Shown: one piece after another, positions 9,453-59,202 of the stretch | Layout of the letters: each line of letters starts with the position of its first letter | How positions within the stretch are numbered: position 1 is the first letter of the stretch | Source: Burkholderia multivorans ATCC BAA-247 | GTDB lineage: Bacteria > Pseudomonadota > Gammaproteobacteria > Burkholderiales > Burkholderiaceae | Length of the DNA stretch: 64,000 nucleotides | Assembly (NCBI RefSeq): GCF_000959525.1 | Contig: NZ_CP009831.1 | Coordinates: 930,001 to 994,000, forward strand | Reading direction: 5' to 3' | The notes under the pieces: model-generated | The model's input: only the letters and a program-made list of their open reading frames with translations | Databases searched by the model: none | What the model was told of the DNA's origin: nothing | Translations under genes and position numbers: made by a program

Positions 9453-10355
9453 ATGTCGATACTCGTAGGGACGGCTTCCTGGGCCGACAAGACGCTGATC
9501 GAATGCGGCGCTTTTTACCCGCCCGGCTTCAAGAGCGCGGAGGCGCGGCTGCGGTATTACGCGAGCGTGTTTCCGGTGGTCGAGGTGGATTCGTCGTACT
9601 ACGCGATGCCGAGCGCGACGAACAGTGCGCTCTGGGTCGAGCGGACGCCGCCGGGCTTCGTGTTCGACATGAAGGCGTTCCGGCTCTTCACCGGCCATCA
9701 GACGGAGCCGAGATTCTTTCCGAAGGATCTGCAGGCCGAGCTGCCGAGCACCGGCAAAAAGAACCTCTACTACAAGGACGTGCCGGCGCCGATCGTCGAG
9801 GAATTGTGGTCGCGCTTCTTCGAGGCGCTGCGGCCGTTGCACGACGCAGGCAAGCTCGGCGCCGTGCTGTTTCAGTTTCCGCACTGGGTGACCGCGGCGC
9901 CGAAGTCGCGCGCGCACGTCGAGCACTGCGCCGAGCGCATGCATCCGCTGCTCACCGCATTCGAATTCCGGCACGAGAGCTGGTTCGACGAGAAGCATCG
10001 CGAGTCGACGCTGGCGATGGAGCGCGCGCACGGGATCGTGCACGTGATCGTCGATGCGCCGGAAGGCGTGACGAAGCGCGTGCACTCGGTGTGGGAGGCG
10101 ACGTCGAGCGAGCTCGCGATCGTGCGGCTGCATGGCCGCAACGCGGCGACCTGGAACGGCTCGGCGACGGTGGCCGAGCGGTTCAACTACGAGTACAGCG
10201 ACGACGAACTGCGAGATCTGGCGGGGCCGATCACGGCAATTGCCGGGCGCGCTGCGCAGACGCACGTGTTGTTCAATAACTGCTACCGCGATGTCGCGCA
10301 GCGCAATGCGCGGACGATGATGCGGATGGTCGATGCGGCGGGCGCCCGGCCGTGA
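9453..10355 (+). CDS. DUF72 (YecE-like) protein
   Basis: 300 residues with the DUF72 TIM-barrel-like signatures: GTASWADKTL at the start, the FPVVEVDSSYYAMPS strand, the TPPGFVFDMKAFRLFTGH segment, LFQFPHW, and FEFRHESWFD followed by VRLHGRN. Function of the family is unknown. GGAG lies eight bases before the ATG. It is divergent from the helicase gene, sharing a 243-bp intergenic region. Nothing in context indicates a partner. Confidence 0.88.
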   Translation: MSILVGTASWADKTLIECGAFYPPGFKSAEARLRYYASVFPVVEVDSSYYAMPSATNSALWVERTPPGFVFDMKAFRLFTGHQTEPRFFPKDLQAELPSTGKKNLYYKDVPAPIVEELWSRFFEALRPLHDAGKLGAVLFQFPHWVTAAPKSRAHVEHCAERMHPLLTAFEFRHESWFDEKHRESTLAMERAHGIVHVIVDAPEGVTKRVHSVWEATSSELAIVRLHGRNAATWNGSATVAERFNYEYSDDELRDLAGPITAIAGRAAQTHVLFNNCYRDVAQRNARTMMRMVDAAGARP

Positions 10356-47952: not shown

Positions 47953-48075
47953 CGGAGCGGGATGCGGCGAAGCGATGCATGCGATCCATGCACCGAACGC
48001 GGCGGACTCGCGCGGCGCCGTCCGTTGACGCACCGCCATGAGGCATCGCCATGCACCGCTTGTGCCGATTTGAGG

Positions 48076-48083
48076 GTGTACAC
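48076..48083. promoter_or_regulatory. GTGTACAC palindrome, candidate NicR autoregulation site
   Basis: Second perfect GTGTACAC, with GAGG before and TCC after, 43 bp before the chosen nicR start. It would fall inside the coding region if the upstream ATG at 48051 were used, which argues for a start at 48126. Confidence 0.45.
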
Positions 48084-48125
48084 TCCATGTCTTTCGGTTT
48101 TCATGCGGTGCGAGCCGCGACTTTC

Positions 48126-48572
48126 ATGGCGTCTTCCAGGGATTCCTACGACTTTCACGACCAGATCGGGCACTTGCTGCGCCGCGCGTATCAACGGCAC
48201 GTCGCGATCTTCCAGGAGGCAATTCCGGATTCGGATCTGACGGCCGCGCAGTTCGTCACGCTGTGCGCGGTGAAGGAGCGGCAGGCGAGTTCGCTGAACG
48301 ACATCGTGAAGGCGACCGCGATCGATCAGGCGACGATACGCGGCGTCGTCGAGCGGTTGAAGACGCGCGCGCTGATCGAGGTGTTGCCCGATCCGAACGA
48401 CGGCCGCAAGCTGCTCGTGCGAGCGACGGCCGCCGGCCTCGCGCTGATCGACCGCACGGTGCCGTTCGCGCGTCAGGTGACGGAACGCACGTATGGGACG
48501 CTGAATCCGGGCGAGCGCGTCGCGCTGCAGTTTCTGCTGCGCAAGATGATGGACGAAGAGGGCGCCGAGTGA
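48126..48572 (+). CDS. nicR: MarR-family repressor NicR of the nicotinate pathway
   Basis: 148 residues from ATG 48126. The MarR winged helix is clear: DSYDFHDQIGHLLRRAYQRHVAIFQEAI forms the dimer helix, then LNDIVKATAIDQATIRGVVERLKTRALIEVLPDPNDGRKLLV the recognition helix and wing. The HLLRRAYQRH motif and linkage to all nic genes identify it as NicR, which in Pseudomonas represses the nic operons until 6-hydroxynicotinate binds. Alternative starts are 48087 and 48051; only 48051 has a good ribosome site (GAGG), but it would place a candidate operator within the gene. It is convergent with nicB. Confidence 0.82.
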   Translation: MASSRDSYDFHDQIGHLLRRAYQRHVAIFQEAIPDSDLTAAQFVTLCAVKERQASSLNDIVKATAIDQATIRGVVERLKTRALIEVLPDPNDGRKLLVRATAAGLALIDRTVPFARQVTERTYGTLNPGERVALQFLLRKMMDEEGAE

Positions 48573-48624: not shown

Positions 48625-50916
48625 CTAGGCGGTATCGGCCGCCGCGCGCGTGCCGGCCGCATCGCCCGCAAGCAAGCGGCCGGCGTCGCGCAGTCCGGCG
48701 CGAATCGTCTCCGGCGTAAAAGGCGGTGCGTAGAACCGCACGCCGGTCGCATCGAACAGCGCGTTCGCGACCGCGGCCGGCCCCGGCACCGACGCCGATT
48801 CGCCGGCACCGAGCGGCGGTTCGCCCTGTCGCGGCATCAGCACGACGTCGACGTCGGGCACCTCCGCGAACGTCAGGATCGGATAGCCCGCCCATTCGCG
48901 CGAGGCGACCTTGCCGTCCGCAAAGCGCACGCGCTCCTTCAGCGTGCGGCTCAGCACCTGGATCACGTTGCCGTGAATCTGATGGCGTACGCCGTCCGGA
49001 TTGATCATCGTGCCGGTGTCCTGTCCGACCGTCACGCGCTCCACGCGGATTTCGCCGGTCACGCGATCGACGCTCAGATCCACGATCCACGCGGACCACG
49101 CCGCGCCGAAACCGGGAAAGCGGCTGTGCACGTAGCGCGCGTACGCGATGCCGCGCCCGCGTACGACGCGCGCCGGATCGGGATCGCGGCGCACGCGCGG
49201 CGTCCAGCCTGCGCGTTCGGCCACGGCATGCAGCAGCTCGATCGCGCGCGCGTCCTGCAGATGACGGATGCGAAACGCCAGCGGATCGACGCCCGTCAGC
49301 GCCGCGCACTCGTCGACAAACGTATCGTGCGCGAACGAGTTCGGCAACGCCGAGACGCCGCGCAGCCACGACGCGCGCACGAGCGGCGCGAGATCCTCGC
49401 AGACGAAGCGCCGGTGCGCGCAGACATACGGCGACACGGCCGTGCGGTCGCCCATCTCGAACACGCGCGGCTCGGGCGCGATCGTGCCGGTCAGCAGTGC
49501 GGCAAGCAGCGGCGCGTCGTTCGACGGGTAGCGCGTCGCGAAGTCGTAGCCGACGAGGCGGCCGTCGCGCGACACGGTGCCCGTCACGCGCATCTGCTGG
49601 CCCGCGCCTTTCGGTTCCCACAGATGCTCGTCCGCACGCATCAGCTGTACGCGCACCGGGCGCCCGACCGCGCGCGACAGCAGCAGCGCATCGCCGCAGA
49701 CGTCGTCGGCGCCGTTGCGGCCGTAGCAGCCGGCGGCTTCCATCCGCACGATGTCGATGTCCGCTTCGTCGCGCGCGACGAGCGTCGCGAGGTCGTAGCG
49801 CAGCGACACCGGGTTCTGCGTGCCGGACCACACGGTGATGCGCCCGTCGCCGGGTGCGCGGTAGTCGGCGACCGCGCACGACGGTCCGATCGACGCATGC
49901 ATCTGGAACGGCCACGTATAGGTGCGCGTCAGCGTGAGCGTGTCGGGCAACGTGCGGGCGGCTTCGACGTCGCCTTCGTCGAGCAGCAGGCGCGGCTGCG
50001 CGGGCGCGGCGGCGATCGCCGCCGCCGGATCGTCGAGCGGCGGCAGCGGCGGATGCGGGCGCCACACGACGCGCAGTTGCCGCGCGGCGCGGATCGCGTG
50101 CTCCTCGCGCTCGGCGACGACGCCGACGAAATCGCCGATCGTCACGACCGCGACGAGCCCCGGCACGTCGGCCACCGACGTGCGATCGACGTCCAGCAGC
50201 GACGCGCCGACGAATGGGCCGCTGTCGTGGCCTGCATACGGTGGCCGCACGACACGGCCGTGCAGCATGCCGGGCACGCGTACGTCGTGCACGAACGTGA
50301 GTTCGCCGGTCGCCTTTGCCGGCAGGTCGACACGCGGCGACGCGCGGCCGACGATGCGGTACTGCGCCGGATCCTTCGTGCGCGTGTGCGGGTCGAGCGT
50401 CAGCGCGATGCGGCGCTGCGCGACGAGTTCGGCGTAGCTTGCCTGGCGCTGCGCGCCGCTGTGGTCGACGGCCGAGATCGTGCCGTCGTCGACGCGCAGT
50501 TGCCCGGCATCGACGCCGAACTGCTCGGCGGCCAGCGCAAGCAGCGCATGTCGCGCCTGTGCGGCCGCGCAGCGCAACGGTGCGGCCGAAATCTGGATCG
50601 TCGCGCTCGCGATGGTCGGGCCCTGGTTCGGTGTCGCGGCCGTATCGCCGAGCACCATCGTCACGCGCGCGGCCGGCACGTCGAGTTCCTCGGCGACGAT
50701 CTGCGCGAGCGAGGTGCGGATGCCGGTGCCGAGGTCGACGTGACCGTTGAAGGCGAGGATGCGGCCGTCGTCGACGATCGCGACGAATACTTCGGGCAGC
50801 GCCGGCACATACGACGACAGGCTGCCCGGCTGACCGGGCGCCGGCTTCACCGGCGGCGCGGGCGGCCGGATCACGGTCAGGCAGCCGGTGCGCGCGAGCA
50901 GTTCGGAGCGGTTCAC
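48625..50916 (-). CDS. nicB: Molybdopterin-binding large subunit of nicotinate hydroxylase (NicB molybdenum part)
   Basis: 763 residues, start GTG 50916. It belongs to the isoquinoline-1-oxidoreductase/NicB branch of xanthine-dehydrogenase-like enzymes: AFNGHVDLGTGIRTSLAQIVAEELDVPAARVTMVLGDT, MEAAGCYGRNGADDVCGDALLLSRAVGRPV, LRGVSALPNSFAHDTFVDE, and the catalytic GEPPLGAGES motif with Glu706. In Pseudomonas NicB the molybdenum domain is fused to a three-heme cytochrome c tail, whereas here the protein stops after the molybdenum part. The cytochrome is encoded at 56704-59202. It hydroxylates nicotinate at C6 using water, passing electrons to NicA and on to the cytochrome. It has its own promoter at 51042-51070. 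Confidence 0.87.
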   Translation of the reverse strand: MNRSELLARTGCLTVIRPPAPPVKPAPGQPGSLSSYVPALPEVFVAIVDDGRILAFNGHVDLGTGIRTSLAQIVAEELDVPAARVTMVLGDTAATPNQGPTIASATIQISAAPLRCAAAQARHALLALAAEQFGVDAGQLRVDDGTISAVDHSGAQRQASYAELVAQRRIALTLDPHTRTKDPAQYRIVGRASPRVDLPAKATGELTFVHDVRVPGMLHGRVVRPPYAGHDSGPFVGASLLDVDRTSVADVPGLVAVVTIGDFVGVVAEREEHAIRAARQLRVVWRPHPPLPPLDDPAAAIAAAPAQPRLLLDEGDVEAARTLPDTLTLTRTYTWPFQMHASIGPSCAVADYRAPGDGRITVWSGTQNPVSLRYDLATLVARDEADIDIVRMEAAGCYGRNGADDVCGDALLLSRAVGRPVRVQLMRADEHLWEPKGAGQQMRVTGTVSRDGRLVGYDFATRYPSNDAPLLAALLTGTIAPEPRVFEMGDRTAVSPYVCAHRRFVCEDLAPLVRASWLRGVSALPNSFAHDTFVDECAALTGVDPLAFRIRHLQDARAIELLHAVAERAGWTPRVRRDPDPARVVRGRGIAYARYVHSRFPGFGAAWSAWIVDLSVDRVTGEIRVERVTVGQDTGTMINPDGVRHQIHGNVIQVLSRTLKERVRFADGKVASREWAGYPILTFAEVPDVDVVLMPRQGEPPLGAGESASVPGPAAVANALFDATGVRFYAPPFTPETIRAGLRDAGRLLAGDAAGTRAAADTA

Positions 50917-51041
50917 GGAGCAGGTGTCCTGGGTGGCGGCGCGGCGGGTGCCGCGCGAAAAAGTCGTTCGGGACGGTTGGCGGCACGATCGCCGCGTCGT
51001 TTCCGGGCCGCTCCCGAATGATCCGCGCGACCGCCCGTTCG

Positions 51042-51070
51042 AATCTAGACGGCCAAAAACGCGGCGTCAA
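51042..51070 (-). promoter_or_regulatory. Sigma-70-like promoter for nicB
   Basis: On the minus strand TTGACG (51070-51065), a 17-base spacer and TAGATT (51047-51042) precede the nicB start by about 126 bp. No GTGTAC motif overlaps it, so nicB may also be expressed independently of NicR. Confidence 0.5.
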
Positions 51071-51139
51071 AGGCGGCGGTGGCCGGCGTCGAGCGCGTCG
51101 CGACCGGTGCGGCGCAGTTCGGCCGCGATGCGCATCGGC

Positions 51140-51838
51140 TCAGCGCGCGGGCGCGTGCGTCGCATGCGTCGCATGTGTCGCATGTGTCGCATGTGTCGCG
51201 TGCATCGCATCGATCGCCGCGATCGCATCGTCGAGCGGCATCACGGCCGCATATTTCTGCTGCATGTCGAACAGATTCGCTTCGTGCGGTGCGATCGCCC
51301 GATCGCCGACGCAATCGGCGAGCACGAGCGGACGGAATCCGTGCGACATCGCATCGACGACGCTCGCGCGCACGCAGCCGCTCGTCACCGCACCGGCGAC
51401 GAGCAGCGTCTGCACGGCGCGCTGCGCGAGCCAGGGCGCGAGCTGCGTGCCGAAGAACGCGGACGGCACGGTCTTGCGCACGACGAGCTCGCCGTGCGCG
51501 GGCGTCAGTTCCGGCACGATCGCGCTGTTCGGGTGGTGCTCGGTCAGCGTCGCCATGCCGGGCACCTTCAGCGAGAACACGTTGTCGTCGCTGCCGTCGT
51601 CCGCATAGACGATCCGGCTGTGCGCGACCGGCCAGCCGCGCTGCCGCGCGATCGCGAGCGCCTGCGTCGTGCGCGCGATCGCCGGCGCGATGTTGCCGCC
51701 GCCGAACGTCGCAGGATCGGCGAACCCGACGACGAAGTCGACGATCAGCAGCGCAAGCCTGCCGTGTGGCGGCAACGGCGTGCCGAAACCCTGTTCGCGA
51801 TACACGTGCGCTTCGGCGTGGTGGGAGAGGTCGTTCAT
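51140..51838 (-). CDS. nicF: Maleamate amidohydrolase NicF
   Basis: 232 residues of the isochorismatase-like hydrolase fold. The catalytic triad is Asp34 (LIVDFVVGF), Lys122 (VVRKTVPSAFFGT) and nucleophile Cys155 in VAGAVTSGCVRASV. It hydrolyses maleamate to maleate and ammonia. GVIDAM-type specificity residues match the NicF pattern, and the gene lies within the nic operon, 12 bp after nicX. The last 20 residues are a His-Ala-Thr repeat encoded by a 9-bp tandem repeat, absent from the core fold. No strong ribosome site is visible, so translation may be coupled to nicX. Confidence 0.87.
   Translation of the reverse strand: MNDLSHHAEAHVYREQGFGTPLPPHGRLALLIVDFVVGFADPATFGGGNIAPAIARTTQALAIARQRGWPVAHSRIVYADDGSDDNVFSLKVPGMATLTEHHPNSAIVPELTPAHGELVVRKTVPSAFFGTQLAPWLAQRAVQTLLVAGAVTSGCVRASVVDAMSHGFRPLVLADCVGDRAIAPHEANLFDMQQKYAAVMPLDDAIAAIDAMHATHATHATHATHATHAPAR
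51155..51199. repeat. 9-bp tandem repeat encoding the His-Ala-Thr tail of NicF
   Basis: Five near-identical copies of a 9-bp unit (GTGTCGCAT-like on the plus strand, Thr-His-Ala on the minus strand) in frame at the 3' end of nicF. The two units nearest the stop carry a C for T change. Copy number could vary by slippage without frameshift. Confidence 0.85.
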
Positions 51839-51849
51839 CGTGGGTCTCG

Positions 51850-52890
51850 TCAGGCGGGTTGGTCGGTCACGCGCCCGTCGCGCACGACGGCGTGGCCGTC
51901 GAGTTCGACCGTGCAGCGGCGCAGCGGGATGTCGATGTGGCACGTCGTGGTGCGGCTGCCGCCGCCTTCGTTGTTCGGGCCGAGCGAGAACAGGAAGTTG
52001 CCCTCGAAGGCGCGCGCGTCCATGCCGATCGTCGCTTCGCGGTCGTAGAGGCCGAGCGTCGACCAGCGCGCGCGCGGCTGCAGCCCCCAGCCGATATGCG
52101 AGATCGCATAGCCTTCGGGATCGGCGAACGTGTCCATGTAGTCGCGCAGCAGATCGGCGTCGACGCCGCCTTCGATGCGCGTCGCATAGCCGCCCTCGAC
52201 GGTCAGCACGATCGGCTCGCTCACGTAGTGCTTCTGCGGCAGCAGGATGTCGCCGCGATCGATGACGATCGTGCCGCGCGCCGTGCGATCGTTCGGGTAG
52301 GTGAGCGCGAAGCCGCTCGGCCAGTGATCCCAGCGGCCCGGCGCGTCGACGAAGCCGTACTCGGCCGTCGGCGCGAAATCGCCGAGCGGGCAGACGAACG
52401 CGGTGCCGGCCGCCGAGCTGACGCGCATCTCGCGCGCGGCGGCAATCTGCTTCGTCGCGGCGAGCACGCGCGTGCGATCGGCGAGCGTCGGCACCATCCG
52501 CACCAGCACTTCGGGCGGCTCGACGGCGAGCAGGATCTTCGTGCCGGACTTCAGGATGTCGTGCTGCTCCGGCGAGAACAGCAGCGTCATCAGATCGAGC
52601 ACGAGATCGCTCGCCTGCAGCGCCGCGATCGCGGCGCGGTTGCCGGTCAGCGGCGTCGTGCCGAGATAGGCGAGCGGATCGCGGCTGAATGCCTTGTCGC
52701 CGTTGACGGGCGGCAGGTCGAGCCGGTTCACGATCGCGCCCATCGACTGCGTCGCGATCAGCGCGCATGACAGCGTCTGAGGATGGGTGGCCGCGCTCGT
52801 CAGGATCGTGACGGTCTGGCCCGGTTCGAGGCGCGACAGCGTGAGCACCTGCTTCCACGCGTCGATCAGTTGGGTGTCGCTGACTGGCAT
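51850..52890 (-). CDS. nicX: 2,5-dihydroxypyridine 5,6-dioxygenase NicX
   Basis: 346 residues, start ATG 52890 after GGAG. The iron ligands known from Pseudomonas NicX fall at the same numbers here: His265 (AISHIGWGL), His318 and Asp320 (TTTCHIDIPL). Other matching blocks are MTLLFSPEQHDILKSGTKILLAVEPPEVLVRM and MRVSSAAGTAFVCPLGDFAPTAEYGFVD. It cleaves 2,5-dihydroxypyridine with O2 to N-formylmaleamate. It is the third gene of the minus-strand operon nicE-nicD-nicX-nicF, 36 bp from nicD. Confidence 0.93.
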   Translation of the reverse strand: MPVSDTQLIDAWKQVLTLSRLEPGQTVTILTSAATHPQTLSCALIATQSMGAIVNRLDLPPVNGDKAFSRDPLAYLGTTPLTGNRAAIAALQASDLVLDLMTLLFSPEQHDILKSGTKILLAVEPPEVLVRMVPTLADRTRVLAATKQIAAAREMRVSSAAGTAFVCPLGDFAPTAEYGFVDAPGRWDHWPSGFALTYPNDRTARGTIVIDRGDILLPQKHYVSEPIVLTVEGGYATRIEGGVDADLLRDYMDTFADPEGYAISHIGWGLQPRARWSTLGLYDREATIGMDARAFEGNFLFSLGPNNEGGGSRTTTCHIDIPLRRCTVELDGHAVVRDGRVTDQPA

Positions 52891-52926
52891 CGTCGGCTCC
52901 GGTAAAGGCGTGAGGAAAAGGCGGCG

Positions 52927-53757
52927 TCAGGCCGCGAGCGGCGCGCCGAGGAAGTCGCCGAAGGCCGCGTAGAAGCCGCGTGCGTTGTCCCACGGAATCA
53001 TGTGGCCGGCATCGGGCACGCGCACGTGCCGCATCGACGGCGTCGCGCGCTGCAGTTCGGCGACGTCGTCGTCGCGTACCACGTCGCCGCGCTCGGCCGT
53101 GATCAGCAGCGACGGCACCGCGAGCTGCGCGGCGTCCGCGTGGAAGTCGTCGGTGTGAAAGCCCTCGTACGAGGCGCGCACCGCGCGCTCGTCGCAGGTA
53201 TGCAGCCACTCGGCACGCAGCTGCCGCTCCGCGTCGGTCCAGGTCGGGCAGAACGCGCGCATCCCTTCGGCGTCGGTGCCCGCACGTGCGAGCGCGATCG
53301 AATCGATGTACCACGGCAGCTTGCCCGGATACTCGCGGCGGCCGGGGCCCGACACGGGCGGATCGACGAGCACGACCGATTCGAGCCCGCGGATGCCGCG
53401 CCGCGCGGCGCGTGCGGCGATGCGCGCGCCCATCGAATGACCGACGAGGCTCGTGCGCGACAGGCCGAGCGCGGCGACCAGCGCTACGACGTCGTCGGCC
53501 TGCGCATCGAGGCTGTAGTCGAGCGTGGGCGACGCGTCGGAGAGCCCGCGGCCGCGCACGTCGAGCACGTACGTATCGAATGCGGCGCCGAACGCTTCGC
53601 CGACGAACCCCCATGTGATCGCAGGGCTCGTGATGCCGGGAATCAGCACGATCGCCGCACGCGTCGCGCGCGCGCCGGTTGCGCCGCCGTAGCGCAGGTA
53701 GTGCTGGCGGATGCCGTTGGCGCGCACGTTCGCGCCGTACAGGAAAGTCGAGGACAT
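52927..53757 (-). CDS. nicD: N-formylmaleamate deformylase NicD
   Basis: 276 residues of the alpha/beta-hydrolase fold. The catalytic triad is Ser108 (GHSMG), Asp132 (VLVDPPV) and His252 (DAGHMIPWD). Each is exactly seven residues beyond the published Pseudomonas NicD triad Ser101-Asp125-His245, so the two proteins align without gaps over the core. It converts N-formylmaleamate to maleamate plus formate. The gene lies between nicE (27-bp gap) and nicX (36 bp). Confidence 0.92.
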   Translation of the reverse strand: MSSTFLYGANVRANGIRQHYLRYGGATGARATRAAIVLIPGITSPAITWGFVGEAFGAAFDTYVLDVRGRGLSDASPTLDYSLDAQADDVVALVAALGLSRTSLVGHSMGARIAARAARRGIRGLESVVLVDPPVSGPGRREYPGKLPWYIDSIALARAGTDAEGMRAFCPTWTDAERQLRAEWLHTCDERAVRASYEGFHTDDFHADAAQLAVPSLLITAERGDVVRDDDVAELQRATPSMRHVRVPDAGHMIPWDNARGFYAAFGDFLGAPLAA

Positions 53758-53784
53758 CGCGAAAGCTCCGTCGGAAACGCGCGT

Positions 53785-54537
53785 TCAGTACGCGCCGGAC
53801 AACAGCGCGCCCGCGCCGGGCACGATCGGCTCGAGATCGAGTTCGCGCAGCATCGCGTAGGTCGTCGCGATCGCGGCCGTGATCACCGGCTTGCCGGTCA
53901 TGGCCTCGACTTTCGCGACGGCCGGCAGCGACGGCATCTGCACGCAGGCCGACAGCACGATCGCGTCGGCGTCCTGATACGGGAGCGTCTTGACGATGTC
54001 GGGCAGCCGCGCCGGATCGTGGCGGCCGACCTCGAGGTTGTCGGGGATTTCGAGCGCGCGATAGGCAATCACGTCGTAGCCCTCGTTGCGGATGTAGTCG
54101 ACCACGAGCTCGGTCAGCGGCTTCATGTACGGCGCGACGACGACGATCCGCTTCGCGCCGATCACGCGCAGCGCGTCGACGAGCGCGCCCGCGCTCGTCA
54201 GCACCGGCGCGCGCGCGCCGTTGCCGGCCGTATGTTCGGTCAGGCGCGCCTGCGACACGCGGTGATAGCCGTGCCCCATCGCCATGATCGCGACGAGGCA
54301 GGCGTAGCCGAGCACGTCGACGCGCGCGTCGGACAGCTCGACCGCGCAGCGGTCGGATTCGGCGTCCATCGCCGCCAGCTCTTCCTTGACGACCTTCTTC
54401 ATCCGCATCCGGCTCGAGTGGTACGTGAAGCGCTCGGGCCGGATCGTTTCGCGCAGCCGCAGCATCGCGGGGATTTCCGTTTCCATCGTCGTGTTGGAAC
54501 TCGGCACGATCTGGCCGATGCGATAGGTCTTGCTCAT
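53785..54537 (-). CDS. nicE: Maleate isomerase NicE
   Basis: 250 residues from ATG 54537. The racemase-like fold has the two catalytic cysteines: Cys80 in LGYACLVAIMAMG and Cys198 in IVLSACVQMPSLPAV, 118 residues apart as in characterised maleate isomerases. The N-terminal YRIGQIVPSSNTTMETEIPAML is the standard start. It isomerises maleate to fumarate, feeding the citric acid cycle. It is the first gene of the minus-strand nic operon and its promoter holds a candidate NicR site. Confidence 0.92.
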   Translation of the reverse strand: MSKTYRIGQIVPSSNTTMETEIPAMLRLRETIRPERFTYHSSRMRMKKVVKEELAAMDAESDRCAVELSDARVDVLGYACLVAIMAMGHGYHRVSQARLTEHTAGNGARAPVLTSAGALVDALRVIGAKRIVVVAPYMKPLTELVVDYIRNEGYDVIAYRALEIPDNLEVGRHDPARLPDIVKTLPYQDADAIVLSACVQMPSLPAVAKVEAMTGKPVITAAIATTYAMLRELDLEPIVPGAGALLSGAY

Positions 54538-54605
54538 GACGGGAAGGCTCCGTGTCGGTGAGGGAGGGGCGCTGTGCTGGCGGGCGATCGCGCAGGTTCG
54601 AGCAA

Positions 54606-54634
54606 AGTCTAGTGTGTACATTTGAAAATGACAA
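54606..54634 (-). promoter_or_regulatory. nicE operon promoter with candidate NicR operator in its spacer
   Basis: On the minus strand TTGTCA (54634-54629), a 17-base spacer and TAGACT (54611-54606). The spacer contains the core of TAGTGTGTACA (plus strand 54610-54620), which matches the nicC promoter and importer-upstream motif copies. A repressor bound here would block RNA polymerase directly. Confidence 0.65.
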
Positions 54635-54737
54635 TGGGTCAAAATTCGCCGGTGAGCCTGAAGATCGACGGCATATAAAGAATTTTGGCAAAATATCGGG
54701 GTTTTCCCGAACCTGAAAATGCGCCTCGACAATCCGC

Positions 54738-55994
<1,257 letters not shown>

Positions 55995-56210
55995 CGCATC
56001 GCACGACGATGCGCGGCTTCGCCGCCGGCGCGCGCTGCGCCCGTCGTTCGTGCGACGCCGCGCGCGGTGCCGGTACGCGGCGATTTCGGCGTGTTATACG
56101 TCGATGTCGCGCGCGCCGGCGATCGGCGTCGCCGCGCGCCGGTCTGCGCCGGCCGCCGGCCATGCCTGCCGTCGGCTGACGTTCGCCCGCACCCGCTTCC
56201 GGATCTGCCC

Positions 56211-56714
56211 ATGTCCCATTCCGCTTCCGCGCCGCGGCCGCTCGCGTTTCGCGTCAACGGCGTGCCGCACCGCTTCGACGCCGCCGCCCCCGATACGCCG
56301 CTGCTGCTGGTCCTGCGCAACGATTGCGCGCTGAACGGCCCGAAATACGGCTGCGGACTCGGTCAGTGCGGCGCGTGCACGGTGCTGATCGACGGGCAGC
56401 CGGCGCGCGCCTGCGTGCTGCCGGCGGCGGCCGCATCGGGGCGCGACGTGACGACGCTCGAAGGGCTCGGCTCGCGCGATGCGCCGCATCCGGTCCAGCG
56501 CGCATTCATCGACGAGCAGGCCGCGCAATGCGGCTATTGCCTGAACGGGATGATCATGAGCACGAAGGCGTTGCTCGACCGCAACCCCACGCCGGATGAC
56601 GCGGCGATCCGCGAGGCGCTGCGCTTCAATCTGTGCCGCTGCGGCACGCATCTGGAGATCGTTCGCGCGGTGCATCGCGCGGCACGCTATGTGCGGGGCG
56701 ACGATGCAGCGTGA
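56211..56714 (+). CDS. nicA: [2Fe-2S] small subunit of nicotinate hydroxylase, NicA
   Basis: 167 residues from ATG 56211. The N-terminal plant-ferredoxin cluster has Cys48, Cys53, Cys56 and Cys68 (YGCGLGQCGACTVLIDG); the C-terminal helical cluster has Cys107, Cys110, Cys142 and Cys144 (QCGYC ... LCRCGTH). It relays electrons from the molybdenum site of NicB to the cytochrome. Its stop codon overlaps the start region of the cytochrome gene by 11 bp, so the two are translated together. The frame continues upstream without meaning. Confidence 0.92.
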   Translation: MSHSASAPRPLAFRVNGVPHRFDAAAPDTPLLLVLRNDCALNGPKYGCGLGQCGACTVLIDGQPARACVLPAAAASGRDVTTLEGLGSRDAPHPVQRAFIDEQAAQCGYCLNGMIMSTKALLDRNPTPDDAAIREALRFNLCRCGTHLEIVRAVHRAARYVRGDDAA

Positions 56715-59202
56715 TCCGAACCTGCCGGCACATGCGCGCGCCGCGCACGACGCGCTCGAATCGCGCGATGCGTCGGGCGCCGACGACACGGGCCTGCGCG
56801 CGCATCGTGCGCGCTATGGCTGGCCCGCCGGCGACGCGCGCGATGCCGCGTCGCTCGACATCGAAACGCACACCGCACCCGATGGACGGATGACCGCCTG
56901 GCGTTACCGCGCCCGGCTCGCCGCGACGGCGGGCGATGGCGACGACGCCGGACGCGTCGCGTCGTCCGGCGCATCGTCGCGCGCCGCGCCGCCGGCGGTG
57001 CCGTTCGTGTACCGGCACGCACACACGGCGATCGACATGACGGACGCCGACGCGATCCCGCGTCATGCGCACGTATTCGCGCGCGAGTCGTTCGTCGACG
57101 AACTCGCGGGCACGTTGCGCCGCGATCCGGTCGCGCTGCGCTTGCAGCATCTCGATGCGTCGGCGGATGCGGGCCCGCGCGAGGTCATCCGGATGGTCAG
57201 CGAACGTGCGGCCTGGGGTGCGCAGACCGTGCACGATCGCGGCATGCCGACGCGGCTGACCGGGCGCGGTTTCGCGTTCGACGGCGCGACGGCGAACGCG
57301 CCGACTGCTGCGCTCGCGCCCGCCGACGAGCCGGCGGCTCGGGCCAAAGCGCACGACGCCGCGCACACCGACGAAGCGAGCTGGTCCGCATGGGTCGTGG
57401 ATCTCGACGTCGACCGCGCGACCGGCGATGTCGCCGTGCGCCGCGTCGTGGCCGGGCAGGGCAGCGGCGAGCCGGGCCGGGCGGCGCTCTCCGGCTTGCC
57501 CGCGTGGCAGATCGAGGCGGCGATCTCGCGCGTGATGGGCGCGCCGCTGATCGCGCGCGCGGCGCACGACGAAGCCGAGGCCGGCGCACGCGACTCGGCA
57601 CTCGCGCACGAACTGATCGCGGCCGATGCGAAGCAAGCCCGCGCGCGCCGCGCAGCGTCGCCCGACGATGCACGCCGGATCGAGCATGCGGTCGCACCGG
57701 CAGCGGCAGCGATCGCGAATGCGCTGTACGACGCGACGGGTATGCGGTTTCGCGCGCCGCCGTTCGATCCGATGCGGATACGCGCGGCACTCGCGCGGCC
57801 GTCGCAGGCAGACGTCGCGGACGCGACCGGCGAAGCCAGCCGGCCCGAACGCGACGCCGCGGCGGGCCGCGCGCCGCGTGCCTCCTCGCGCTGGCACCGA
57901 TGGCTCGCGGGCGGCGGCATCGGCGGCGTGGTCGGCGGGCTGGTCGGGCTCGCCTGCGCGATCTTGCCGGGGCCGGCACCGATCGCGCCGATCGCACCGG
58001 GCGGCGCGGACGGCGCGATGTGGAGCGACGCGACGCTCGAACGCGGGCGCCAGATCGCGATCGCCGGCGATTGCGCGGTATGCCACACGGCGCCGGGCGG
58101 CGCGACGAATGCGGGCGGCCTTGCGCTCGACACGCCGTTCGGCACGATCTATACGACGAACATCACGCCGGACCGCGACACGGGCATCGGCGCGTGGTCG
58201 TATCCGGCCTTCGCGCGCGCGATGCGCGACGGCATCTCGCGCGACGGCACGCACCTGTATCCCGCGTTCCCGTACACCGCCTTCGCCAAGCTGAGCGAGC
58301 CCGACATGCTTGCACTCTATGCGTATCTGATGTCGCAGCCGCCGGTGCAGCACGTGCCGCCGAAGACGAAGCTGCGGTTTCCACTCGACCGGCGCCGGCT
58401 CGTCGCGGGCTGGAACTGGCTGTTCCACGACGCGCGTCCGTTCGCGCCGGACCCCGCGCGCTCGGCGCTGTGGAATCGCGGCCGCTATCTCGTCGACGGC
58501 GCCGGGCATTGCGGCGCGTGCCACACGCCGCGCAACGCGCTCGGCGCGGAAAAGGGCGGGTTCGCCTATCTGTCCGGCGGCGAAGCGGAAGGCTGGATCG
58601 CGCCGCCGCTCGTCGCATCGCGCGCCGCGCCGGTGCCGTGGACCGAGGCCGCGCTGTTCGACTATCTGCGCACTGGGTTTTCCGCGCAGCACGGCGTCGC
58701 GGCCGGGCCGATGGCGCCCGTCGTCGCGGGGCTCGCCGCGCTGCCCGAAGCCGACGTGCGCGCGATCGCGCATTACATCGCATCGCTGTCGCCGCCGGTC
58801 GATGCGGCGACGGCCGCCGACGCGGCGGCCCGTCACGCGCGCGGCGCGGAAGCAGTCGCGACGCTCGGCCTCGAAAACGGCCGCCGCGCGTTCGACGCCG
58901 CATGCGCGGTGTGCCATGCCGAATCGGGCGGCGTCGGCCATTTCGGCGTGCGTCCGCTGATGGGGCTGAACACGAGCGTGAGCCAGGCGACGCCCGACAA
59001 CCTGCTGCGCGTGCTCCATCACGGGATCGACCGGCCGGCGACCGACGCGCTCGGCTACATGCCGGGCTTTCGCGATGCGTTCGACGATCGGCAGATGGCC
59101 GAACTCGCCGCGTTCATCCGCGCGCGCTATGCGCCGGGACAACCGGCATGGCGCGATCTCGAGCAGGCGTCTGCGCGGATCCGACGCGAAGCCGTGCACT
59201 GA
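56704..59202 (+). CDS. Triheme cytochrome c subunit of nicotinate hydroxylase with a vestigial molybdopterin domain
   Basis: 832 residues, ATG 56704 inside the end of nicA. Residues 1 to about 385 are a shortened relic of the NicB molybdenum domain: VFARESFVDELAGTLRRDPVALRLQHL, WSAWVVDLDVDRATGDVAVRRVVAGQ and AAIANALYDATGMRFRAPPFDPMRIRAAL each align with blocks of the active subunit at 48625, but the molybdopterin loops and catalytic GExxxGE motif are missing. A membrane span follows (about 400-420), then three heme c sites: CAVCH (457-461), CGACH (603-607) and CAVCH (734-738). This is the layout of the tail of Pseudomonas NicB. The hemes must be exported, so the relic stays cytoplasmic, where it may dock NicA or the molybdenum subunit. 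Confidence 0.85.
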   Translation: MQRDPNLPAHARAAHDALESRDASGADDTGLRAHRARYGWPAGDARDAASLDIETHTAPDGRMTAWRYRARLAATAGDGDDAGRVASSGASSRAAPPAVPFVYRHAHTAIDMTDADAIPRHAHVFARESFVDELAGTLRRDPVALRLQHLDASADAGPREVIRMVSERAAWGAQTVHDRGMPTRLTGRGFAFDGATANAPTAALAPADEPAARAKAHDAAHTDEASWSAWVVDLDVDRATGDVAVRRVVAGQGSGEPGRAALSGLPAWQIEAAISRVMGAPLIARAAHDEAEAGARDSALAHELIAADAKQARARRAASPDDARRIEHAVAPAAAAIANALYDATGMRFRAPPFDPMRIRAALARPSQADVADATGEASRPERDAAAGRAPRASSRWHRWLAGGGIGGVVGGLVGLACAILPGPAPIAPIAPGGADGAMWSDATLERGRQIAIAGDCAVCHTAPGGATNAGGLALDTPFGTIYTTNITPDRDTGIGAWSYPAFARAMRDGISRDGTHLYPAFPYTAFAKLSEPDMLALYAYLMSQPPVQHVPPKTKLRFPLDRRRLVAGWNWLFHDARPFAPDPARSALWNRGRYLVDGAGHCGACHTPRNALGAEKGGFAYLSGGEAEGWIAPPLVASRAAPVPWTEAALFDYLRTGFSAQHGVAAGPMAPVVAGLAALPEADVRAIAHYIASLSPPVDAATAADAAARHARGAEAVATLGLENGRRAFDAACAVCHAESGGVGHFGVRPLMGLNTSVSQATPDNLLRVLHHGIDRPATDALGYMPGFRDAFDDRQMAELAAFIRARYAPGQPAWRDLEQASARIRREAVH

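What the first reader, a model, noticed from the sequence alone, without database searches (positions are those of the whole stretch)
56704..59202. Cytochrome subunit of nicotinate hydroxylase carries a fossil molybdopterin domain
The first ~385 residues align in three separate blocks with the active molybdenum subunit encoded at 48625-50916 (FVDE..., WSAWxVDLxVDRxTG..., ANALxDATGxRFxAPPF), but the cofactor loops and catalytic GEPPLGAGES are gone. The rest is a membrane span and three CxxCH hemes. This suggests that a NicB-like fusion lost its catalytic half after a separate copy took over, leaving a scaffold that may now dock the active subunits. The active subunit is in another transcription unit and has no cytochrome.
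Basis: partly seen in the sequence, partly recalled or inferred. Interest (0 to 1): 0.8.

Follow-up and report, generated by a model that had tools for sequence, protein, structure and literature searches.

The report
Dead molybdenum-enzyme domain kept on cytochrome
In the bacterial enzyme thought to start the breakdown of vitamin B3, the membrane cytochrome still carries about half of an old molybdenum-enzyme domain that has lost its catalytic parts, yet pieces of it are conserved about as strictly as the working enzyme, perhaps because it holds the working parts at the membrane.

Summary
Residues ~125-376 of the 832-aa protein at 56704-59202 (NicB2) are homologous to the C-terminal half of the separate molybdenum subunit NicB1 at 48625-50916 (BLASTP E=1e-25; hhalign 99.9%, E=1e-33). 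Five cofactor/active-site motifs are absent from 70 of 70 relics examined. The rest is one predicted membrane span and three CxxCH hemes. 'Fossil' is only half right. Relics form one clade within the NicB1 + fused-NicB group, and relic length falls stepwise from a gammaproteobacterium to Burkholderia, so a fused NicB probably was duplicated and the copies lost complementary halves. The relic is not simply decaying: its three blocks have dN/dS ~0.10 (active subunit 0.10, cytochrome 0.08), while most of the rest is relaxed (~0.4). New correlation: of 29 naked-cytochrome loci with a detectable Mo gene, 27 have a Tat signal on that Mo subunit and the other two carry the relic in another frame; none of 57 NicB1/fused proteins has a credible Tat signal. 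Best explanation: a conserved pseudo-Mo domain, the cytosolic handle that docks NicA-NicB1 onto the membrane cytochrome. The tripartite NicA/NicB1/NicB2 arrangement is in print; I found no description of the relic in the papers I could search.

The parts
56704..59202 (+). nicB2: pseudo-Mo domain + predicted membrane span + tri-heme cytochrome c, 832 aa
56704..57870 (+). relic (residues 1-389); homology to the NicB1 C-terminal half firm for 125-376
57007..57219 (+). conserved relic block 1 (VYRH...ERAAWG, residues 102-172), omega 0.12
57379..57462 (+). conserved relic block 2 (SWSAWVVD...VVAGQG, residues 226-253), omega 0.10
57688..57795 (+). conserved relic block 3 (AVAPAAAAIANALYDATG...RIRAALA, residues 329-364), omega 0.05
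57910..57966 (+). predicted membrane span (residues 403-421, hydropathy only), N-terminal side inside by charge
58072..58086 (+). heme motif 1 CxxCH
58510..58524 (+). heme motif 2 CxxCH
58903..58917 (+). heme motif 3 CxxCH
56211..56714 (+). nicA, 2Fe-2S subunit; stop overlaps the nicB2 start; own start inferred
48625..50916 (-). nicB1, intact molybdenum subunit, no Tat signal, no cytochrome
54837..55994 (+). nicC-like FAD monooxygenase upstream of nicA, same strand; NCBIfam matches below cut-off, name recalled; start inferred
53785..54537 (-). nicE-like gene; not scanned against families, name recalled from cluster order; start inferred
52927..53757 (-). nicD-like alpha/beta hydrolase; NCBIfam matches below cut-off, name recalled
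51850..52890 (-). nicX-like gene; no NCBIfam hit, named by place in the cluster
51140..51838 (-). nicF-like amidohydrolase; NCBIfam matches below cut-off, name recalled; start inferred
48051..48572 (+). nicR-like MarR regulator; NCBIfam matches below cut-off, name recalled

Best explanation
NicB2 is the electron-transfer subunit of a tripartite nicotinate hydroxylase (NicA 2Fe-2S, NicB1 Mo, NicB2 cytochrome). Its N-terminal ~390 residues are a conserved pseudo-Mo domain: the C-terminal half of an ancestral NicB Mo domain, stripped of cofactor binding. Shown: homology; absence of five Mo-site motifs; one relic clade within the NicB1/fused-NicB lineage; a graded series of lengths; strong purifying selection on three blocks; an N-inside charge pattern at the predicted span; no credible Tat signal on NicB1-type partners. 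Inferred: the relic lies in the cytosol, on the same side as NicA-NicB1, and serves as the handle that docks them at the membrane next to the cytochrome, most simply by keeping the Mo-domain contact surface of an old NicB homodimer, so that NicB1 pairs with the relic as it once paired with another NicB.
For: Colinear homology. dN/dS: blocks 0.10, most of the rest 0.41, whole 0.29, cytochrome 0.08, NicB1 0.10 in 20 Burkholderia; blocks 0.083, rest 0.37, whole 0.26, cytochrome 0.089, NicB1 0.104 in 13 Paraburkholderia/Trinickia. Of 65 Burkholderia genomes 27 have a NicB1 at 77% identity or more, and the relic was found in each of these 27: 23 intact fusions, 3 that run into contig ends, 1 with a frame change. 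Relics one clade 100/100 (17 of 48 sampled). N-inside charge pattern in 48 of 48 NicB2. Tat pattern: of 31 naked-cytochrome loci, Mo was found in 29, with a Tat signal in 27; the 2 others have the relic upstream in another frame and no Tat pattern; 0 of 57 NicB1/fused have a credible Tat signal. XO-family enzymes analysed by crystallography were dimers, with PaoABC presented as the first not to dimerise via its Moco domain (PMC3958847, abstract and passages).
Against: No structure, interaction or mutant data. The Tat/relic association is confined to one clade, so it may be one event, and 12 of the 27 Tat loci are close orthologues within Burkholderia. Linkers are long and fast-evolving. Cytosolic Fe-S and periplasmic c hemes leave the electron route across the membrane unexplained. 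The span is called by hydropathy alone; 2 of 48 NicB2 (one of them the gammaproteobacterial one) fall under my threshold there. Blocks were chosen after seeing the alignment, so block omegas lean low.
Confidence: 0.55

Rival explanations
1. Decaying passenger: the relic is a leftover kept only because cytochrome translation depends on the same ORF and start; it has no role.
For: Most of the relic outside the blocks evolves fast (omega ~0.4; 25% mean identity in the last linker); relic length falls from ~570 to ~350-430 aa along the series.
Against: Whole-relic omega 0.29, omega=1 worse by ~352 lnL units; blocks about as constrained as NicB1; among the loci examined no non-Tat system lacked the relic or a fusion altogether.
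Confidence: 0.15
2. The relic is needed for biogenesis: it shapes insertion of the cytochrome or helps cofactor loading of NicB1, and does not form part of the mature complex.
For: Conserved blocks without catalytic motifs; cytosolic placement inferred.
Against: No specific evidence; related naked cytochromes do without it.
Confidence: 0.15
3. Shared active site: relic and NicB1 each supply part of one Mo site, as the L and M subunits do in Eubacterium barkeri nicotinate dehydrogenase (recalled).
For: Best PDB sequence match of the relic is 3hrd_B, the medium Mo subunit (E=0.0096); E or D in the catalytic-Glu register in 40 of 70 relics.
Against: NicB1 has the motifs itself, and relics lack all five in 70 of 70.
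Confidence: 0.05

Closest known systems
NicB of Pseudomonas putida KT2440 (fused Mo + cytochrome; recalled, not fetched) and ten fused relatives found here (L161-L166, L251-L253, L256)
   Same: Mo domain and tri-heme cytochrome in one chain, no Tat signal (the ten)
   Different: Mo half intact with a Glu in the catalytic register (10 of 10); no separate NicB1 needed (inferred)
Tripartite NicA/NicB1/NicB2 of Burkholderia gladioli and Bordetella (PMC10269826, passages) and nicB1/nicB2 of Delftia (PMC4572682, passages)
   Same: Same three-gene organisation
   Different: The passages seen do not mention a relic Mo domain on NicB2
Comamonas testosteroni JA1 nicotinate dehydrogenase (21, 82, 46 kDa; PMC10331938, passages) and the Tat-type loci here
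   Same: Separate Mo and Fe-S subunits of related size
   Different: A 46-kDa third subunit leaves no room for a relic; the review calls it a flavoprotein, that it is the cytochrome is my recollection. In the Tat-type loci the Mo subunit carries an export signal
AldFGH-type membrane aldehyde dehydrogenase (PDB 8gy3)
   Same: Best PDB match of both the Mo subunit and the cytochrome
   Different: Cytochrome chain of 444 aa, too short for a Mo-like extension
Eubacterium barkeri nicotinate dehydrogenase NdhM (3hrd_B)
   Same: C-terminal half of a Mo domain as a separate polypeptide
   Different: NdhM belongs to a split, active Mo site (recalled); the relic accompanies a complete NicB1
NuoG of respiratory complex I (recalled)
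   Same: Inactive Mo-enzyme-derived subunit kept as a structural part
   Different: Belongs to the DMSO-reductase superfamily, not the xanthine-oxidase family

Membership tests
Nicotinate hydroxylase NicAB system | 2Fe-2S subunit + xanthine-oxidase-family Mo subunit + three CxxCH cytochrome in a nic cluster | tested here: met
   the other nic genes are named by recall and order
Nicotinate hydroxylase NicAB system | Converts nicotinate to 6-hydroxynicotinate | not testable with these tools
   inferred from the neighbouring nic-like genes
NicB2 (tripartite type) | Cytochrome-bearing protein accompanied by a separate NicB1 | tested here: met
Active Mo domain (MoCoBD_1/MoCoBD_2) | Pfam match and cofactor/active-site motifs | tested here: not met
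   no hit at E<=1; 0 of 70 relics with any of five motifs
Pseudogene / decaying domain | omega near 1 over the whole region | tested here: not met
   whole relic 0.29 and 0.26; outside the blocks 0.41 and 0.37
Pseudoenzyme docking subunit | Physical contact with NicB1 or NicA | not testable with these tools
Split Mo site of the NdhL/NdhM kind | Mo site made of two chains, neither complete | tested here: not met
   NicB1 carries the motifs itself:

The most novel reading that the evidence does not exclude
NicB1 and the NicB2 relic form an obligate enzyme-pseudoenzyme heterodimer descended from a NicB homodimer: a xanthine-oxidase-family counterpart of complex I's NuoG. It would be fixed because loss of the Tat signal left the Mo subunit in the cytosol, so that a cytosolic handle on the cytochrome, by fusion or by relic, became indispensable.
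Probability: 0.35. Interest if true: 0.75.

Novelty: new variant of a known kind. Interest (0 to 1): 0.55.

Why it matters
It gives a series (fused enzyme, long relic, short relic) of how a duplicated fusion enzyme may split its jobs between two copies while the losing half turns into a conserved structural part. It also ties three architectures of one enzyme (naked, fused, relic-bearing cytochrome) to where the Mo subunit sits relative to the membrane, which can be tested directly, and it exposes an open question: how electrons get from a cytosolic Fe-S subunit to periplasmic c hemes.

Tried and rejected
Rejected: chance or Ala-rich composition. Rejected: real gene splits in G004 and G051; both pieces run into contig ends. 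Rejected: relic-free exceptions L245/L246; the relic lies upstream in another frame, and L246 also has broken nicC and Mo frames; the Mo N-terminus of L246, read in its own frame, has no Tat pattern. Weighed and not adopted: an internal start giving a relic-free cytochrome; 42 of 48 have some ATG/GTG/TTG within 30 codons before the span, the window has none there, so it is not excluded elsewhere. Structure prediction yielded nothing. The codon runs printed no omega and were redone; the 32-codon membrane span gave no usable omega. In the omega=1 comparison kappa was fixed at 3.2, near its fitted value of 3.13. The script labelled 7 of 10 fused proteins 'RELIC' because its motif pattern was too strict; I relabelled them by their same-ORF Mo hits of 719-813 bits and.

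Rows dropped or sampled: G025 (L082; NicB1 in two frames) - its NicB1 from the alignment and both its genes from the Burkholderia codon sets, though its NicB1 stayed among the 87; G011 NicB2 (L097, frame change) and the contig-end relics L092, L095, L101 from the NicB2 sets; L090/L091 from the Burkholderia omegas as too diverged; L137/L138 as remnants. Trees used samples: 21 NicB1 and 6 fused, 21 of 48 NicB2, 17 of 48 relics. The 13-genome omega set is not fully independent: three of its members had been in view when the blocks were chosen. In the Burkholderia sets 'rest' leaves out the N-terminal stretch around YGWP (omega 0.27).
Full report
WHAT IS THERE. The window carries a nicotinate-degradation cluster: nicR, nicB1 (Mo), nicF, nicX, nicD, nicE (48.0-54.5 kb) and nicC-nicA-nicB2 on the plus strand (54.8-59.2 kb). 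The nic names of the smaller genes are recalled from the P. putida pathway and the gene order; NCBIfam matched them only below its cut-offs or not at all, and nicE was not scanned. The flagged ORF is 56704-59202, 832 aa; its ATG overlaps the nicA stop by 11 bases. Pfam finds cytochrome c domains in it, and nothing in residues 1-389 at E<=1.

IS THE SIMILARITY REAL. Yes. Residues 125-376 match NicB1 528-755 at 34% identity, E=1e-25. The local score of 292 compares with a shuffle mean of 52 and a maximum of 88 in 500 shuffles. Profile against profile gives 99.9% and E=9.6e-34, colinear. Residues 1-124 alone are not significant; the link there rests on the profile and on longer relics elsewhere.

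HOW WIDE. Of 65 Burkholderia genomes, 27 have a NicB1 at 77% identity or more, and in each of these 27 the relic was found: 23 as an intact fusion, 3 running into contig ends (G004, G051, G050), 1 (G011) with a frame change inside the relic. The match list was cut, so absence from the other 38 is not claimed. The named collection gave 34 loci, among them Paraburkholderia, Caballeronia, Trinickia, Pandoraea and Lampropedia; two are contig-end pieces (L131, L132) and two remnants (L137, L138). Lampropedia, genomes of two further families and a gammaproteobacterium (G823) have a longer relic that still shows the hammerhead region and much of the first Mo domain. Relic length from start to span: 543-570 aa in these six, 546 and 473 in two intermediate genomes, 352-431 in 40 Burkholderia and close kin; 751-820 for the Mo part of six fused NicB. 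Further searches matched 13 of 293 genomes in the order of G823 and 88 of 250 in the family of G388; not all of these matches are relic-bearing.

WHERE IT CAME FROM. Mo-subunit tree (36 rows): NicB1 and fused NicB group together (99/98) apart from the Tat-type subunits. With the shared C-terminal columns of 17 relics added (43 rows), relics are one clade (100/100) within the NicB1 + fused group (100/100), on long branches. Against a simple history: NicB1 is not recovered as one clade in either tree (the gammaproteobacterial NicB1 stands apart; one clade in 20% and 2% of bootstrap trees), where the relic clade attaches among NicB1 and fused is unresolved, and the cytochrome tree is poorly resolved and does not separate NicB2 from fused NicB. 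Reading, partly inferred: since the relic is a Mo C-terminus joined to a cytochrome, its ancestor was a fused NicB; a duplicate kept the Mo domain without cytochrome (NicB1) and this copy lost the front of the Mo domain (NicB2).

IS IT DECAYING. Codon models (MGK+F3X4, 20 Burkholderia): whole relic 0.29 (lnL -10813.7 against -11165.5 with omega fixed at 1), three blocks 0.10, N-terminal stretch 0.27, remaining columns 0.41, NicB1 0.10, cytochrome 0.08. Thirteen Paraburkholderia/Trinickia sequences: blocks 0.083, rest 0.37, whole 0.26, cytochrome 0.089, NicB1 0.104. The blocks were chosen after viewing an alignment that held three of the thirteen, so block values lean low; the whole-relic values do not depend on that choice. 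Mean identity to the window over 21 Burkholderia: blocks 80-91%, cytochrome 89%, NicB1 87%, last linker 25%.

IS IT DEAD AS AN ENZYME. Five motifs of the Mo site (P[ND]QGP, C[YFA]GRN, RGV[SG]ALP, NPxGxxHQ, G[AVS]GE[SA]; chosen by me from the NicB1 alignment) occur in 0 of 70 relics, against 73-86 of 87 separate Mo subunits (some cut by locus ends) and 5-10 of 10 fused proteins. In the register of the catalytic Glu the relics have E 28, D 12, other residues 29, no motif 1. I treat the E/D as not meaningful without the loops, but report it. That this Glu is the catalytic one is recalled family knowledge.

TOPOLOGY AND A NEW CORRELATION. All 48 NicB2 proteins have more positive charge on the N-terminal side of the best hydrophobic stretch before heme 1; that stretch passes my hydropathy threshold in 46 of 48. 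So the relic should be cytosolic and the hemes periplasmic. In 31 loci with a naked cytochrome (no Mo-like extension in its ORF), a Mo gene was found in 29, and 27 of these carry a twin-arginine motif with a hydrophobic stretch (in one, L250, the Mo is a distant 27% match, and 12 of the 27 are close orthologues in Burkholderia). The two exceptions (L245, L246) have the relic upstream in another frame. Of 57 NicB1 and fused proteins none has a credible Tat signal; 8 have an RR pattern without a hydrophobic stretch. The 29 relic loci with a detectable Mo gene and the 10 fused loci, which overlap that set, show none either. So in this sample fusion or relic goes with a Mo subunit that seems to stay in the cytosol. 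These belong to one clade and may be one event; the pattern is suggestive, not a statistical proof.

HOW IT LIKELY WORKS. If the Mo and Fe-S subunits are cytosolic and the cytochrome sits on the other side of the membrane, something cytosolic on the cytochrome chain could hold them. A fused NicB would do so by its own Mo domain; NicB2 by what is left of it. XO-family enzymes analysed by crystallography were dimers, PaoABC being presented as the first that does not dimerise via its Moco domain (PMC3958847, abstract and passages), so the simplest guess is that the relic keeps that surface and pairs with NicB1. This step is inference. How electrons cross the membrane is unexplained.

WHAT IS KNOWN. 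Tripartite NicA/NicB1/NicB2 is named in B. gladioli and Bordetella (PMC10269826, passages) and nicB1/nicB2 in Delftia, where nicB1 is annotated as an aldehyde dehydrogenase (PMC4572682, passages). A review (PMC10331938, passages) lists an enzyme with 21-, 82- and 46-kDa subunits and calls the last a flavoprotein; that it is the JA1 enzyme with a cytochrome is my recollection. I found no description of a relic Mo domain on NicB2 in eight searches (mostly listings seen), which cover only open-licence PMC papers; a P. putida and a Bordetella paper that I looked up are not held, so absence from print is not established.

VERDICT. Observation confirmed; interpretation partly supported: not a mere fossil but a conserved, apparently catalytically dead domain of probable structural role. 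New variant of a known kind.

Noticed in passing
window 51152-51210: 9-bp tandem repeat (6.6 copies) at the 3' end of the nicF-like gene, coding a run of Ala-Thr-His units.
   Followed up: partly
L097 (G011) 9487-9511: Reading frame of nicB2 changes inside the relic, between residues matching ~290 and ~299; natural break or assembly error not decided.
   Followed up: no
L245 6615-9543: Relic (573 aa) and cytochrome (471 aa) lie in two overlapping frames while nicA and the Mo gene look intact; possibly a real gene fission with the relic kept, possibly an assembly error.
   Followed up: partly
L137 10001-10550; L138 10001-10132: Remnants of nicB2 (end of relic plus cytochrome ends; last 45 aa only) in two Burkholderia genomes, with no other nic-gene hit above 45 bits in the fetched flanks.
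   Followed up: no
G1294:C1:3059472 and 3104722: Two nicB2 matches of equal score about 45 kb apart in one genome.
   Followed up: no
window 57910-57966: The predicted NicB2 membrane span is glycine-rich with GxxxG-like spacing in the window and its Burkholderia kin, suggesting span-span packing.
   Followed up: no
window 48625-59202: Topology puzzle: NicB1 lacks an export signal (NicA shows none by eye) while c hemes must be attached in the periplasm; the electron route is unclear.
   Followed up: partly
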